DNA from: Flavihumibacter soli
GTDB lineage: Bacteria; Bacteroidota; Bacteroidia; Sphingobacteriales; Sphingobacteriaceae
Length of the DNA: 64,000 bases
Assembly (NCBI RefSeq): GCF_010692725.1
Contig: NZ_JAAFZB010000096.1
Span: forward strand, 806,001-870,000
Reading direction: 5' to 3'
The notes under the pieces are model-generated. The model worked only from the letters and a program-made list of their open reading frames with translations, was not told the DNA's origin and did no database searches. The translations under genes and the position numbers were made by a program. The first letter of the stretch is position 1; each line of letters begins with the position of its first letter. Of this stretch, positions 39,899 through 46,215 are shown piece by piece.

Positions 39899-41761
39899 CT
39901 AATTGATTTGAACTGTTTTAATAAAATAATCCTCGGTCTCTTCATCCACTAAATACACATAACACCCTTTCATCCCCCTGGTCATCAAAGTACGATATGT
40001 GTTCTTAATGATTCTATCTAAGCGTCCTGCTGTCTCTGTCGGTGCTCTTTTCATCAGGGATTTGTAGCCTCTCACAGAAGAATCGTTCTTAGATCGCTTG
40101 GTTGCATCTGTAATAATTTGACCGTCCCTAACGACAAGATCCTCTCCGACAATAACGCCAATGTAATCTACTTCCAGTCCCTGGCATGTATGAATACAGC
40201 CTACTTCATTAACCGAGTTCGGACTCATGATCCAAAGGCTACCGTCATCGGTTAAATTCCATTGCATGGCAAAATCATCATCCGGAAATACAATATCTTT
40301 TGCTAAAGGATTTTTCTGGCTGACCCAGTCCCAGCAATATCCTGCCACAAGGCGCGCCTTGTTATTTTCCTTGTTCTTCTCAAAGATCAGATCGCGCAAT
40401 TCTGAAGGTGAACTGCAAACGCGGAAGTCATAGTCTTTTGTATCCAGCGTAGGGTTAGCCGTTTCTTTTATCTGCAGGCTATGATCGAGCCATGCCAGGT
40501 ATCCGTCCGAACCGTTACACCGAAATTGTGAAGTGAGATCCAGTTCATGAACTTTTGCACCGGAGGCGACCGCCCAATTAATTAATTCCGACTTTTCGCC
40601 GATATCGTTAAGAGTTACGCGTTGATCCTCATCAATAAAGAATACAGAGAATTTTGAAGCCTCAATGATCTCCTTTATCTGGTTCTCACCCAGGTTCTTG
40701 AACATGCCCGACTTTTCATTGAGCCGGTGTGCTTCATCAACTACCAGTGCATCAAAGGTATTTGCATCTGCCCCAATATATGCCCCGGAACCTTTGAACA
40801 GGTTAGAAATAACCGTTTTCTTCAGCGTCCCTGTAAGTTTGCTCTCGTAGACGGCACGCGGTGCGGCGTTCTTGGTTACATACTGTGTATTCAGGCCCTT
40901 TTTATTAAGCTCGACTAAAAGATTTACGGCAACAACAGATTTTCCCGTGCCGGGACCGCCTTCAACGATCAGCACATTTTTATTGGTTTCAGATGACTGC
41001 TGTGCAAGTGCTTTTGCAGTCTCAAATACAACCTTTTGATCATCGATCAGGATGAATTCATCATTACCCTTGAGCATGGAGGCCATGCTGTCCGCAAGAC
41101 TTTTAGACGGCTTGATCTTCCCGCATTCAATACGGTACATGATCCGGCTCCTGTCTCCAAATTTTACAAAGCGCTTAATGAATTCACGAAGCTTGATGGC
41201 ATCCGGCTTAAGGAATATCGGAGCCTTCTCTATATACTCTGAATAGAATTTGTTGTCAATAATACCATCCGCGGTGTAGTTATGCAGGTATGCGCATGGG
41301 CTGAGCTGTATATTCTCGTCATAAACCGCCTGGTTAAAACCATTCAGCAGCGCTGCATAGGACCATGCCTGGTATGAAGGATGGGCAGTATCCTTATAGC
41401 TCCCCCTGAATGGCGTCCGGATAATGCTGTCACGGTTGGTTAGCTCGGCTTCCGACCATTGCTTTAATTCGATCAGCACCGCATGATCAGCATTGCTTGA
41501 ATCCTGCCCTGTAATAATAAAATCCAGGCGCTTGGAAGTTTGAGGGATATGATATTCTATCGCCACATTGCAGTCGCCGGGAATTTCAGGATCCTGCAAT
41601 ACGGTACCCATGTACATCAGGGAGTTTTTCCAGGATAATAACTCGCTTGAGCCTACCCGTTTTCCGGCGTAGGTTTCGAAGTCCTCGCGAACAATATTTT
41701 CAATGTCGTTGGAAAGAATATCATTCAGAAACTGGGTCTTGGTAGAATGGTATACGATCAT
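39899..41761 (-). CDS. DUF2075 Schlafen-type helicase with N-terminal nuclease-like domain
   Basis: A 620-residue protein. Residues about 60-110 (RLDFIITG...VLIELKQW) have the spacing of a PD-(D/E)XK nuclease core. The DUF2075 helicase domain follows, with Walker A EGGPGTGKS at about 263, Walker B VVDEAHRL at about 340, FIDEDQRV at about 375 and the late motif 'TCQGLEVDYIGVIVGEDL' at about 520. DUF2075 proteins belong to the Schlafen-group SF1 helicases found in defence islands. The gene starts 3 bases after the MazG-like gene and is surely in one operon with it. Confidence 0.88.
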   Translation of the reverse strand: MIVYHSTKTQFLNDILSNDIENIVREDFETYAGKRVGSSELLSWKNSLMYMGTVLQDPEIPGDCNVAIEYHIPQTSKRLDFIITGQDSSNADHAVLIELKQWSEAELTNRDSIIRTPFRGSYKDTAHPSYQAWSYAALLNGFNQAVYDENIQLSPCAYLHNYTADGIIDNKFYSEYIEKAPIFLKPDAIKLREFIKRFVKFGDRSRIMYRIECGKIKPSKSLADSMASMLKGNDEFILIDDQKVVFETAKALAQQSSETNKNVLIVEGGPGTGKSVVAVNLLVELNKKGLNTQYVTKNAAPRAVYESKLTGTLKKTVISNLFKGSGAYIGADANTFDALVVDEAHRLNEKSGMFKNLGENQIKEIIEASKFSVFFIDEDQRVTLNDIGEKSELINWAVASGAKVHELDLTSQFRCNGSDGYLAWLDHSLQIKETANPTLDTKDYDFRVCSSPSELRDLIFEKNKENNKARLVAGYCWDWVSQKNPLAKDIVFPDDDFAMQWNLTDDGSLWIMSPNSVNEVGCIHTCQGLEVDYIGVIVGEDLVVRDGQIITDATKRSKNDSSVRGYKSLMKRAPTETAGRLDRIIKNTYRTLMTRGMKGCYVYLVDEETEDYFIKTVQIN

Positions 41762-41764
41762 CCG

Positions 41765-42094
41765 CTAAAGTTGATCGTATTTCTTAGCAGTTCCCTTCGC
41801 TTTATCCACCGGGTATTTCGCCCGATTCTTTTCTATCTTATCCAGTACGATCTTATTAATATCAAAGCCGTATTTCTCTGCAACCAGTAACGCATAACCA
41901 ATCACGTCAGCCAGCTCATCCTTGATCTTTTCAGGGTCGGCTTCTTCGGCCTTCTTCCAGAGAAACAATTCATTTAATTCCGAAGCTTCGATGGAGAGTG
42001 CCAAAGCAAGGTCCTTGGCATTGTGAAACTGCTGCCAGTCGCGTTCCTCCCTGAACTTAATTAGTTCTTGTATAAGCTTGTCCCAATCCTGCAT
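41765..42094 (-). CDS. MazG-like nucleotide pyrophosphohydrolase
   Basis: A 109-residue all-helical enzyme of the MazG/dCTPase-like superfamily. The metal-binding acidic motif appears as EASELNE (about 32-38), followed by the second motif DELADVIGYAL (about 59-69). It would hydrolyse NTPs or dNTPs to monophosphates. Paired with a DUF2075 helicase in one operon, it may lower nucleotide pools during infection; this is inference, not shown by the sequence. Confidence 0.88.
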   Translation of the reverse strand: MQDWDKLIQELIKFREERDWQQFHNAKDLALALSIEASELNELFLWKKAEEADPEKIKDELADVIGYALLVAEKYGFDINKIVLDKIEKNRAKYPVDKAKGTAKKYDQL

Positions 42095-42525: not shown

Positions 42526-42933
42526 TCAACCATAAATGAACAAGCACATGATTATTGTGGTAATTAACAAAATCGCGACAAACACAACCCATACAGTTAC
42601 CGAGAATGTACTAGATATCCAAGTGTTTTTCCCGTTATTGTAACTTGAAACATCCATTGAATAATCTATCGCGGAATCTACTTTGCCAGCTACTACTTTA
42701 TATAATGCCCTAAACTGCCTCTCTTTGCTTAAATAGTATCCATCAAGTCCCCAAAAAATTAGGACAGAAATATAAGAGATCAGGATATATTTAACATTAG
42801 CATCGTTTGCCGCCAAAGCACAAATTGCGGAAATTAAAGTAATTGCCCACCCCTTAATCAAAAAAGAATTGGAGTTCATTCTAGTAATTACATTTTGGAT
42901 AAACTCTAAATGTTTTTGTTTGTTATCAGCCAT
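42526..42933 (-). CDS. multi-pass membrane protein of the TIR/ATPase cassette
   Basis: A 135-residue protein starting MADNKQKHLEF at 42933; a longer frame to 43047 has no family character. Three hydrophobic segments: about residues 22-40 (FLIKGWAITLISAICALAA), 44-64 and 108-131. The word 'FIQNVITRM..NSFLIKGWA' recalls a frequent small membrane protein found beside bacterial defence genes. It is the third gene after TIR and the KGGVGR ATPase, 118 bases downstream of the ATPase stop. A pore-forming or membrane-damaging effector is a reasonable guess, unproven. Confidence 0.75.
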   Translation of the reverse strand: MADNKQKHLEFIQNVITRMNSNSFLIKGWAITLISAICALAANDANVKYILISYISVLIFWGLDGYYLSKERQFRALYKVVAGKVDSAIDYSMDVSSYNNGKNTWISSTFSVTVWVVFVAILLITTIIMCLFIYG

Positions 42934-43051
42934 GTTTTCAGCATAAAAAATTAAAGAAAGATACTGGCACCTAGTCAAGCGAACGAATCTAAACCATGGT
43001 TTCCATTTTGAGCGGATCATTTGGCAACGACATTGAAAAGTGAACAAATGA

Positions 43052-45100
43052 TCAATTCCAATCTATAGGTTTCTTCATAGTAAACTTATCAAGTTCTTCA
43101 AGAGTGCCATTAAATTGATTTACATCAACTCTTTGACCATTGGATGTTGAAATTCCGTTGACAACTTCAGTGGTACTAAATTGCCAAAAACTCCAGTTTT
43201 TTACTCCGGCAGGCAAAATTGGGGATTTTATTCTATTCTTCCCGTAAACACCAATCCACAATGGATAAGTACCATATTCCGATTCATTGGCAAGGGCTTT
43301 TACCAAATTGTAGCGGGCGTAAATAATGGGTTTTACTCTATATTCTTCTTCGAATAAATCGAGTATTATTTTAACATTTCTTAGCATCTGAATAAAAGAT
43401 GAGGATTGAATATTTGCCGAATGAGATAGGGCATCTAAATTAAGAATCGGCGGAAGATCTCCAGGTTGGAGTTTAACTGTTTTGATGAAAAGATCCGCTT
43501 GTTTTGATGGATCTGTCTTAACTGAGAAATAATGATATGCCCCCCTTACAAAATTGAATTTTCTTGCATTCGGCCAGTTATTAACGAAGCTTATATCAAC
43601 TCGTCCATTGCCATCAGTCGCTTTCATTAAAATAAAGTCTACTCCTGACCCCTTTACTTTCAACCAACTCTCGATTTTGTTTAATCTAGAGATATCAATC
43701 CCAACTGGCTTACCTTGATTGAATATTTCCTTTAACCGCGGCGATAGTTGTGATGAATCAATTTCTGCTGATTCTGAAGTAACCGAATCTATTTGCTCCG
43801 CGAGCGTTGAATCGGTATTAAGGTTTGACTTGGATGAGTCGCTTAGGTTTTTAAGTACCACATTATCAGATTGTTGATTAATTCTCAAATAAAAAATGAA
43901 GGCAACTAAAGGCAAAATGGCTGCCATGCCATAAGTGAGTAACTTTATTTTTCTTTCCTTCTTTGCTATTTCCTGATTTTTAGCTTCATATTTAGATTCA
44001 AGGGAGTTCAATCTTTTCACCTGAGTTTCCAACAGATCGTCTTTGTATTTCATCGAACCGGTTATCGTGGTGTGATCGATATCTTCATTTTCACCTGAAT
44101 AATGCATTACAGAAGATGAGTTCTTTGCCAAATTTACTAGTGTAGTTCTGTTATCTACCAAATATTTGGCCTGATTTAATTGTACGGCAATTAATGCGGC
44201 TATTGCTTCATAGGCATAGCCCATTCTAGCAGGATCAATTAAACCCTCATCTATAACCGGAAGACGTTCCCCAAAACTGTAAAATGGAGTATATGGTATT
44301 TTAGTAAATAATAAAAAGGTTTTTCGGTTAACATCTTTAGGTAGCCAGACGTCATATATTTCAGCCAAACCCTTTTCAAATTTTTCCATCCATTCATTAA
44401 TTTTCTCCGTCTCCGAATTATCAATCCTGGTGGGTATGGGTAAGGTCAATAAATTAATTCTATCAAATGGCAACTTCATCTGAGCCTTTGCGGCTTTTGC
44501 CGCAACCCTTCTTACACCTTCAAAACCTTGATCAGTAGGGGTAAATAATAACGCTAAAATATCTGGCAATTGAATAGTACACACACCACCTATATCCGTT
44601 ACCCCGGTGCGGCTGTCTATAAAAATAAAATCAAATTCCTTTTTCCAATCGTTCCTCAAATCCTCAATAATTTGGCCCCCGTTACTATTGGTATAAAAAT
44701 TATTGAAATCAAACGCTCTCACCTTGTCATAATAATTTTCGTCGAAATTGCCGGAAGTTATCAGGTTAAGGGATTCTATATTAAGATTAGATTTGAAATC
44801 ATCATATTTAATGGGCAATAAACAATCTCTCCAAGAAACTTTTTTTGTAGTCGAATCTGTTGCGCTGGTGAGTATATCAATCAAACCTGGTTTTGCCCTT
44901 GCGCTATCGATAGATATATAATCTTTAAAAAAATTCTCCAGTCCCGGTGCTTCTAAATCCCAATCTATTATTAGAGTTTTATATCCCCACTGAGCTAATA
45001 CTACTGAAACATTAGCCAAGGCAAAGCTTCGGCCGACTCCCCCTTTATAAGAATAGAAAGTTACAATCGTACCAGCTTTGTCTATTATTTTTTTATTCAT
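43052..45100 (-). CDS. KGGVGR-motif ParA-like ATPase fused through a membrane helix to a degenerate GH25 domain
   Basis: A 682-residue fusion. Residues 1-320 are a MinD/ParA-like ATPase with variant Walker A KGGVGRS (19-25), DWDLEAPG (46-53) and FIDSRTG (about 159-165). A linker and coiled coil lead to one membrane helix (about 387-406) and then a GH25 lysozyme-like barrel (about 464-680; GIDIS with Asp469, 'GVDFILMKATDG', 'RGAYHYFS', 'VDVNQFNG'). The usual D-x-E catalytic pair is N554-L-D556, so lysozyme activity is doubtful. It overlaps the TIR gene by four bases. TIR next to KGGVGR ATPases is an association I know from bacterial conflict systems; the GH25 fusion I do not know. Confidence 0.9.
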   Translation of the reverse strand: MNKKIIDKAGTIVTFYSYKGGVGRSFALANVSVVLAQWGYKTLIIDWDLEAPGLENFFKDYISIDSARAKPGLIDILTSATDSTTKKVSWRDCLLPIKYDDFKSNLNIESLNLITSGNFDENYYDKVRAFDFNNFYTNSNGGQIIEDLRNDWKKEFDFIFIDSRTGVTDIGGVCTIQLPDILALLFTPTDQGFEGVRRVAAKAAKAQMKLPFDRINLLTLPIPTRIDNSETEKINEWMEKFEKGLAEIYDVWLPKDVNRKTFLLFTKIPYTPFYSFGERLPVIDEGLIDPARMGYAYEAIAALIAVQLNQAKYLVDNRTTLVNLAKNSSSVMHYSGENEDIDHTTITGSMKYKDDLLETQVKRLNSLESKYEAKNQEIAKKERKIKLLTYGMAAILPLVAFIFYLRINQQSDNVVLKNLSDSSKSNLNTDSTLAEQIDSVTSESAEIDSSQLSPRLKEIFNQGKPVGIDISRLNKIESWLKVKGSGVDFILMKATDGNGRVDISFVNNWPNARKFNFVRGAYHYFSVKTDPSKQADLFIKTVKLQPGDLPPILNLDALSHSANIQSSSFIQMLRNVKIILDLFEEEYRVKPIIYARYNLVKALANESEYGTYPLWIGVYGKNRIKSPILPAGVKNWSFWQFSTTEVVNGISTSNGQRVDVNQFNGTLEELDKFTMKKPIDWN

Positions 45101-45762
45101 AGAGTAGGTAGTGGCATGGGATTTTGGCTTGCACTATAGCTAAACGGCGGAATAAAATATGAGTCGGATCTCCAATCAGGGTCCCATGAGGGAGCTTGTG
45201 AAACAACAGGGTAAATACTTTTTCTTACCCATCTTAGTACAATTGTTCTAAGTTCATCATAAGCTAAACTTTCCTTAAAGCCACTGCTAACGGAATTATA
45301 CTTTAAGTTTAACCGCAAAGGAGAAATATTCAGAATTAAATTTCGCATTCCAACATCTCTAAAAACGGGACTTTGTTCTTCTATGGTAGTTTCTTCTTCA
45401 TCAACAAAGACAATTGGGAAAATTAGTCCCGTATGATTCGGGTTGTTAGCTCTGATATTTAGTACCGTTTCCCTTTTTAACATAGCAGCAAATTCAGAAG
45501 GGCACCAAATTGAATTAACAAAGTATGGAAGCGTAATAATACATACCATGCATTTTGAAAAAGCAACACCATCCTTTAAGACATCAGGCAAGTAAGCGCC
45601 TGACAGGGTTTGGCTCACATCATGAAATATGTCGTCTCGATTAATGGTTCCTTTAACATTTTCAAGGGATTCCCTGAGGATAGGTAGAAATATCTGATCC
45701 ACCCACCTTTTTCTATCACCTCCCCATTTATAACTTACAAAAATATCATGACGGTAACTCAT
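45097..45762 (-). CDS. TIR-domain protein
   Basis: A 221-residue protein with an N-terminal TIR domain: 'HDIFVSYKWGG' (residues 5-15), 'TLSGAYLPDVLKDGVAFSKCMVCIITLPYF' strand-helix pattern, and 'WCPSEF' with Glu90 at the position of the NADase glutamate in SARM1-like TIRs. The C-terminal 80 residues are not recognised. It is the first gene of a three-gene operon; its TGA overlaps the ATG of the KGGVGR ATPase. Likely NAD-consuming or NAD-derived signal-making effector, inferred from family. Confidence 0.92.
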   Translation of the reverse strand: MSYRHDIFVSYKWGGDRKRWVDQIFLPILRESLENVKGTINRDDIFHDVSQTLSGAYLPDVLKDGVAFSKCMVCIITLPYFVNSIWCPSEFAAMLKRETVLNIRANNPNHTGLIFPIVFVDEEETTIEEQSPVFRDVGMRNLILNISPLRLNLKYNSVSSGFKESLAYDELRTIVLRWVRKSIYPVVSQAPSWDPDWRSDSYFIPPFSYSASQNPMPLPTL

Positions 45763-46215
45763 AATTTTAGTATTAAGGAAATCTACAAGGCTTGATTACT
45801 ATCAATTGCCAGTTATCTACTATATTCAATGCTTGAATAAGTTCGACGCTCATATTATCTTTAAGTATGTCTAGTGTCTAATAAATTTCGAAAATAAATA
45901 GATAAATAACGCATGGTTTACAATAAATCTAAACCATGCAATTCTAAGAACTATTCTCTCCTACTCTTTGAGTAAAACCGTCGCCCACTTTCCCCAAAAA
46001 GCCAGAACGCTCCTCAAAACAACCTCAGCTTCTCCGTTTATGTAGTGAGAAATGCCATCACAACCAGCCGCACGAAGTTTCCATCTTCTAAGCGATGAAA
46101 ATATGCTTCATTTAGGGCATTTGTGCCTCGAAAGCCTCGATTAGGATTAATCAACAGTTACCTAACGGGTGAAGAACGAAGCTTCCGAACCCAGCGGATA
46201 GAACCCACAAAACTT
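45763..46215. other. 453-bp intergenic region upstream of the TIR operon
   Basis: No gene seen. AT-rich in its left two-thirds; should contain the operon promoter on the minus strand but no clear TAnnTTTG box was found. Confidence 0.4.

What the first reader, a model, noticed from the sequence alone, without database searches (positions are those of the whole stretch)
42526..45762. TIR / KGGVGR-ATPase-GH25 / membrane-protein cassette: a likely undescribed conflict system
Seen: three minus-strand genes: a TIR protein with Glu90 in WCPSEF, an ATPase with KGGVGRS fused through a membrane helix to a GH25-like barrel (four-base overlap with TIR), and a small three-helix membrane protein. Known: TIR proteins and KGGVGR ATPases occur in bacterial immune or conflict operons. 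Inference: the ATPase may sense and gate TIR NADase activity, with the barrel in the periplasm detecting cell-wall damage or phage entry, and the membrane protein acting as a second effector.
Basis: partly seen in the sequence, partly recalled or inferred. Interest (0 to 1): 0.88.

Follow-up and report, generated by a model that had tools for sequence, protein, structure and literature searches.

The report
TIR enzyme with pseudo-lysozyme membrane receptor
A Bacteroidota bacterium carries a three-gene cassette in which a TIR enzyme is paired with a membrane-spanning ATPase whose outer part is a lysozyme fold that has lost its catalytic residues, so it looks like an immune receptor that watches the cell wall; the TIR-ATPase pairing is already known in outline, but this wall-facing form appears to be new.

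Summary
On the minus strand lie a TIR gene (45097-45762, Glu90), a 4-nt-overlapping KGGVGR ATPase-TM-GH25 gene (43052-45100) and a small membrane protein whose likely start is ATG 42933 (42526-42933). It is not an assembly error: the ATPase-TM-GH25 join recurs in Mucilaginibacter (with TIR and the same overlap) and in another genus of the window's family. The TIR-KGGVGR pair is not undescribed: it is the core of actinobacterial FxsC/FxSxx-TPR loci, and TIR lies just upstream in 74 of 80 KGGVGR loci (controls 1 and 0 of 80). New is the variant. Three ATPases end in a GH25 domain beyond one transmembrane helix, and all three have lost the catalytic DxE motif that 19 of 19 stand-alone GH25s keep, so it is probably a non-enzymatic wall or muropeptide sensor. 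The membrane protein is PADLOC candidate PDC-M50A, which I find beside TIR genes almost everywhere (9/9 plasmids, 12/16 genomes of the phylum, 18/21 viral contigs). Best reading: envelope damage is sensed outside, the MinD-fold module relays it, TIR consumes NAD+, and the membrane protein is TIR's partner. Function is untested.

The parts
45097..45762 (-). TIR protein (221 aa), FxsC-like; catalytic-type Glu90 at 45493-45495; C-terminal APxWxxxW ... PxL tail
   Evidence: Pfam TIR_2 4.3e-5; FxsC_Nterm 2e-4; Glu90 conserved in the 11 aligned TIRs; profile hits plant TIRs in the PDB
45097..45100 (-). 4-nt ATGA overlap of TIR stop and ATPase start (likely translational coupling)
   Evidence: same overlap in L072 and L073
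43052..45100 (-). KGGVGR ATPase - single TM helix - GH25 fusion (682 aa)
   Evidence: recurs in L072 (654 aa) and L071 (886 aa)
44111..45070 (-). MinD/ParA-fold ATPase domain, residues 11-330; deviant P-loop KGGVGR at 45029-45046
   Evidence: NF047398 142.7 bits; AlphaFold model and Foldseek hits to FlhG, Soj, MinD
43886..43942 (-). single transmembrane helix, residues 387-405, preceded by a Lys/Arg-rich helix (ATPase inside, GH25 outside)
   Evidence: hydropathy 2.09; long helix 347-410 in the model
43151..43699 (-). GH25 (lysozyme-fold) domain, residues 468-650, predicted catalytically dead
   Evidence: Pfam PF01183 3.2e-31; PDB 2wag 2.3e-22
43433..43441 (-). site of the GH25 catalytic DxE motif, here N554-L-D556
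   Evidence: alignment with 19 stand-alone GH25s, all DxE
42526..42933 (-). small membrane protein (135 aa), PADLOC family PDC-M50A; TIR-associated membrane partner
   Evidence: PDLC04686 1.5e-50; AlphaFold pLDDT 91.3; TIR neighbours of its family

Best explanation
This is a membrane-anchored member of the TIR + KGGVGR-ATPase conflict systems (the FxsC/FxsT-like pair) in which the usual cytoplasmic TPR/NB-ARC part has been replaced by a transmembrane helix and a periplasmic pseudo-lysozyme. Shown by sequence: the pairing, the topology signal, the loss of GH25 catalytic residues, the TIR glutamate, and the habitual TIR neighbourhood of the membrane-protein family. Inferred: the dead GH25 binds peptidoglycan, muropeptides or a lytic enzyme; that binding is relayed through the helix to the MinD-fold module, which acts as a nucleotide-bound assembly switch rather than an ATP motor; the switch assembles and activates the co-translated TIR, which consumes NAD+ directly or makes an ADP-ribose signal; and the small membrane protein is the TIR's partner, most likely a membrane-damaging effector. 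The result would be growth arrest or death of a cell whose wall is being breached.
For: TIR-encoding frame upstream in 74 of 80 KGGVGR loci against 1 of 80 and 0 of 80 in control windows of the same loci. FxsC + FxSxx_TPR identity of the actinobacterial relatives. Fused GH25 lacks DxE in 3 of 3 (NLD, DLH, NLF), 19 of 19 stand-alone keep it, while the rest of the cleft (GIDIS, GAYHYF/Y, WQF, VDxNxF/LDLNQF) is kept. One TM helix between ATPase and outer part in the window, L072, L074, L075 and L071. TIR Glu90 conserved. The membrane-protein family is next to, or one gene from, a TIR gene in 9/9 plasmids, next to one in 12/16 genomes of the phylum and 18/21 viral contigs, and third in TIR - ATPase - membrane-protein order in an Acidobacteriota genome, L126. 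Precedents: conflict NTPases with peptidoglycan-binding domains beyond a TM helix, and TIR genes accompanied by 2TM SLATT proteins predicted to form pores (Kaur et al. 2020, PMC7159879); a TIR product that triggers a TM effector in type II Thoeris (PMC12847820).
Against: No functional data for any GH25 member. The GH25 form is rare: 3 instances, 2 of 251 sampled genomes of the family and 1 of 147 of one genus. In the window N554-L-D556 keeps an acidic residue, so weak residual activity is not excluded. GH25 was not modelled because the permitted alignment held only one other GH25. In L072 the membrane protein is on the opposite strand beside a ThsB-like TIR, so it may not belong to the ATPase system there. 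The ATPase of L071 falls in another clade and is paired with a different TIR-like gene.
Confidence: 0.45

Rival explanations
1. Decoy model: the pseudo-lysozyme is bait bound by a phage lysis protein or a competitor's muramidase or its inhibitor, rather than a peptidoglycan sensor; the output (TIR activation) is the same.
For: The fold is retained with the catalytic motif gone, as expected of a decoy as well as of a binder; fused GH25s form a clade apart from stand-alone ones.
Against: The non-catalytic cleft motifs are conserved, which suggests glycan binding; no partner known.
Confidence: 0.2
2. The GH25 domain is itself the weapon: residual or altered muramidase activity, switched on by the ATPase, lyses the cell.
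For: Kaur et al. 2020 list a lysozyme-like domain among predicted effectors of conflict systems (PMC7159879); the window protein retains Asp at the Glu position.
Against: Catalytic acid lost in 3 of 3 fused domains and replaced by His or Phe in two.
Confidence: 0.08
3. Not anti-phage: a regulated cell-death or development switch that reads wall remodelling or interbacterial competition.
For: The KGGVGR relatives are prominent in multicellular actinobacteria, and Kaur et al. propose multicellular settings for such systems (PMC7159879).
Against: PADLOC candidate defence models match both flanking proteins; low-G+C, patchy, island-like distribution.
Confidence: 0.2
4. The small membrane protein is a membrane anchor or sensor for the TIR rather than an effector, or in this locus an unrelated neighbour (this concerns only the third gene and can be true together with the best explanation's first two genes).
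For: 118-nt gap from the ATPase; opposite strand in L072; no recognisable nucleotide-binding domain.
Against: TIR-adjacent nearly everywhere, and third in the same order in L126.
Confidence: 0.4

Closest known systems
FxSxx-COOH system: FxsC (TIR-like) + FxSxx TPR protein (KGGVGR ATPase - NB-ARC - TPR), actinobacteria
   Same: TIR gene directly upstream of a KGGVGR ATPase; homologous TIR and ATPase domains
   Different: No FxsC C-terminal domain, no NB-ARC/TPR, no FxsB radical-SAM gene in the genome; instead a TM helix and pseudo-GH25
PADLOC candidate PDC-M50 (M50A membrane protein + M50B ThsB-like TIR)
   Same: M50A membrane protein in a locus with a TIR gene
   Different: The window's TIR is FxsC-like, not M50B, and an ATPase-GH25 receptor lies between them
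PADLOC candidate PDC-M28
   Same: PDC-M28B shares the KGGVGR ATPase segment
   Different: Only part of the M28B profile matches; no M28A partner seen
Thoeris (ThsB TIR + ThsA effector, types I, II, IV)
   Same: TIR gene in an operon with a possible effector; type II has a TM effector
   Different: TIR does not match the PADLOC ThsB models; no SIR2, macro or caspase effector
Conflict NTPases with peptidoglycan-binding domains beyond a TM segment (iSTAND and GAP1-N2 systems, Kaur et al. 2020)
   Same: Cytoplasmic NTPase, TM helix, cell-wall-facing domain
   Different: Different NTPase (MinD/ParA fold) and a dead GH25 instead of PEGA, OmpA, PASTA or SH3
Swarozyc (DUF4062 TIR-like NADase, PMC13174449)
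   Same: L071, the third GH25 fusion, has a TIR-like gene nearby that by eye resembles DUF4062
   Different: Resemblance not confirmed by a profile; Swarozyc as described acts as one protein

Membership tests
TIR + KGGVGR ATPase pair | KGGVGR-motif ATPase over the curated cut-off | tested here: met
   NF047398 142.7 bits, cut-off 90
TIR + KGGVGR ATPase pair | TIR gene immediately upstream, same strand | tested here: met
   general in 74 of 80 relatives
FxSxx-COOH system | FxsC at equivalog level (N- and C-terminal domains) | tested here: not met
   FxsC_Nterm 21.3 bits, cut-off 130; no FxsC_Cterm
FxSxx-COOH system | FxSxx_TPR C-terminal region | tested here: not met
   C-terminus is TM + GH25
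FxSxx-COOH system | FxsB radical-SAM maturase in the genome | tested here: not met
   no match to TIGR04269 in G000
FxSxx-COOH system | FxsA precursor peptide | not tested
   not searched
GH25 muramidase (active) | GH25 fold | tested here: met
   Pfam 3.2e-31; PDB 2wag 2.3e-22
GH25 muramidase (active) | catalytic DxE motif | tested here: not met
   NLD in the window, DLH in L072, NLF in L071; 19/19 stand-alone DxE
PDC-M50 | M50A membrane protein | tested here: met
   PDLC04686 1.5e-50
PDC-M50 | M50B TIR partner | tested here: not met
   window TIR has no PDC-M50B match at E<=1; M50B does match partners in L198, L200, L191, L194, L161
PDC-M28 | M28B | tested here: inconclusive
   2.1e-22 over positions 129-319 of 438 only, the ATPase segment
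Thoeris | ThsB TIR | tested here: not met
   no ThsB model hit for the window TIR at E<=1
Thoeris | ThsA effector (SIR2-SLOG, TM-macro, caspase) | tested here: not met
   no such domain in the three genes or the neighbours scanned
TIR NADase | conserved catalytic glutamate | tested here: met
   Glu90
TIR NADase | NAD+ cleavage | not testable with these tools
   needs biochemistry
SLATT membrane effectors | match to a SLATT family profile | tested here: not met
   no SLATT Pfam hit for any of 14 members at E<=1

The most novel reading that the evidence does not exclude
A bacterial Toll-like logic: a single-pass receptor whose outer domain is a pseudo-lysozyme reading cell-wall integrity or muropeptides and whose inner switch fires a TIR enzyme and a TIR-coupled membrane protein, i.e. 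a wall-damage surveillance receptor that triggers abortive infection.
Probability: 0.3. Interest if true: 0.85.

Novelty: new variant of a known kind. Interest (0 to 1): 0.62.

Why it matters
Most bacterial TIR systems studied so far are thought to sense something inside the cell (own knowledge). This variant would couple a TIR to the outside of the membrane, with an enzyme fold converted into a receptor, and so gives a concrete, testable candidate for cell-wall damage sensing in bacterial immunity. Separately, the survey gives the PADLOC candidate family PDC-M50A a clear context, a near-constant TIR neighbour across bacteria and in one archaeon, which makes it a ready target for asking whether it is a TIR-activated membrane effector.

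Tried and rejected
Assembly-error explanation: rejected, since the fusion sits in a 1.32-Mb contig and recurs in two other genomes. Prophage origin: no phage or viral-contig record carries the full-length fusion; the listed phage hits cover the GH25 part only, and viral contigs gave distant ATPases only. Active lysozyme effector: disfavoured by loss of DxE. FxSxx peptide system proper: no FxsB in the genome. SLATT membership of the membrane protein: no profile hit, and no convincing PDB relative by sequence or fold. Structure of the GH25 part: not obtained, as the permitted alignment held one other GH25. The extra C-terminal domain of L071 looked by eye like a dead CHAP/NlpC domain but gave no database support. 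My gene caller missed many actinobacterial TIR genes in high-G+C DNA (36 of 68), so I repeated the count in all three forward frames (74 of 80). Papers on the PADLOC candidates were not held beyond brief mentions.

Full report
WHAT IS THERE. The three minus-strand genes exist as described. The TIR protein (45097-45762) has Glu90 in WCPSEF. It scores weakly on Pfam TIR_2 (4.3e-5), but a profile of its family finds plant TIR domains in the PDB at 1.2e-13 with the same WC..E glutamate aligned. The second gene (43052-45100) overlaps the TIR gene by ATGA and encodes a KGGVGR ATPase (NCBIfam 142.7 bits, cut-off 90), one transmembrane helix at residues 387-405 and a GH25 domain at 468-650 (3.2e-31). 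The ATPase part is well modelled (blocks mostly 80-90 pLDDT) and is a MinD/ParA fold. The third gene is best started at ATG 42933, giving 135 aa; the model is a helical hairpin plus a third helix (pLDDT 91). The module is 36% G+C in a 46% window. The genome is Bacteroidota by its 16S gene.

RECURRENCE. The ATPase-TM-GH25 join recurs twice: in a Mucilaginibacter genome (L072: TIR, 4-nt overlap, ATPase-TM-GH25; ATPase domain 61-62% identical) and in another genus of the window's family (L071, 886 aa). It is rare: two of 251 sampled genomes of the family, one of 147 of the second genus. The wider pairing is old and widespread. A TIR-encoding frame lies within 2.2 kb upstream in 74 of 80 KGGVGR loci found in GTDB genomes, against 1 of 80 and 0 of 80 in two control windows of the same loci; these include Bacteroidota, Ignavibacteria, Chloroflexota, Myxococcota, Acidobacteriota and Actinomycetota. 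The part after the ATPase varies: TPR, NB-ARC-TPR, a second TIR, TIR-TPR-cold-shock, a GTPase, TIR-YEATS, or TM plus an outer domain. In the tree the window and L072 are sisters within a group that holds TM-bearing Flavobacterium and Chitinophagales forms, whereas L071's ATPase belongs to another clade paired with a different TIR-like gene. The three fused GH25 domains group together (97/95, but with long branches), which suggests that the same outer module was joined to two ATPase lineages.

THE KEY DETAIL. All 19 stand-alone GH25 proteins I aligned keep the catalytic DxE; the three fused domains read N-L-D (window), D-L-H (L072) and N-L-F (L071), while the other cleft motifs stay (alignment with solved lysozymes). 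That DxE is the GH25 catalytic pair is family knowledge. I infer a binding or receptor role, not cutting. With basic residues before the helix, the ATPase should be inside and GH25 in the periplasm (inference).

THE MEMBRANE PROTEIN. It matches PADLOC candidate PDC-M50A at 1.5e-50. I surveyed its neighbours: a TIR gene is adjacent or one gene away in 9 of 9 plasmid loci, from Vibrio to Lactobacillaceae to the archaeon Halorussus, adjacent in 12 of 16 genomes of the window's phylum and 18 of 21 viral contigs. Several partners match PDC-M50B, whose members also match ThsB TIR models. In an Acidobacteriota genome (L126) the order TIR, KGGVGR ATPase(-TIR), membrane protein is the same as in the window. 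So the third gene is a TIR partner by family habit; in L072, however, it lies on the other strand beside a ThsB-like TIR.

COMPARISON. Relatives in actinobacteria are FxsC and the FxSxx TPR protein by equivalog models; Kaur et al. (PMC7159879) noted an inactive MinD/ParA-like domain there, conflict NTPases with peptidoglycan-binding domains beyond a TM helix, and 2TM proteins beside TIR genes predicted as pores. The window is not an FxSxx system (no FxsB, FxsC_Cterm or TPR), not Thoeris and not PDC-M50 as defined. The PADLOC candidates are described as unpublished or mostly unvalidated in the papers I could read (PMC12988326, PMC11811056).

MECHANISM. Most likely: wall damage or lytic activity is read by the pseudo-lysozyme; the MinD-fold switch (P-loop lysine replaced by arginine, so probably not a normal ATPase) assembles; the TIR is activated and consumes NAD+ or makes a signal; the membrane protein is the TIR's effector. 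Only the sequence facts are shown; every functional step is inference. Rivals are given in their field.

VERDICT. A real, recurrent new variant of a known kind, with one striking feature (a dead lysozyme as putative receptor) and one useful by-product (the TIR partnership of PDC-M50A).

Noticed in passing
window 42986-42998 and 45926-45938 (minus strand): The 13-mer CATGGTTTAGATT occurs exactly twice in the window, 5' of the membrane-protein gene and 5' of the TIR gene; a shared operator is possible but may be chance.
   Followed up: partly
window 39899-42094: A MazG-like gene followed 3 nt later by a Schlafen-group-3 helicase gene, next to the cassette; low-G+C genes without any Pfam or PADLOC match continue to about 32 kb.
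   Followed up: partly
L188:1733-4538: Rhizobium plasmid: a protein that looks caspase-like by eye fused to GH25 with a degenerate DxD motif, beside a GH25 gene with DxE and a CHAT-TPR gene; a second possible pseudo-GH25 in a conflict setting.
   Followed up: no
L071:7074-7589: Extra C-terminal domain of the L071 ATPase-GH25 resembles by eye a CHAP/NlpC hydrolase without its Cys and His; no database support.
   Followed up: partly
window 45100-45200 and relatives in alignment A4: TIRs paired with KGGVGR ATPases share a C-terminal APxWxxxW stretch and often end in PxL or PxI, possibly a contact with the ATPase.
   Followed up: no
L164:1-2980: PDC-M50A gene 1 nt after an LRR-ROC-COR-like protein with a TIR-like C-terminus (by eye).
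   Followed up: no
L202, L204, L207: In one family of the phylum the PDC-M50A gene precedes a roughly 440/340/820-aa three-gene cassette with no adjacent TIR detected.
   Followed up: no
L070, L165, L166, L168: A separate Bacteroidota clade of KGGVGR-TPR proteins lies downstream of small genes, in L070 an HTH regulator, instead of a TIR.
   Followed up: partly
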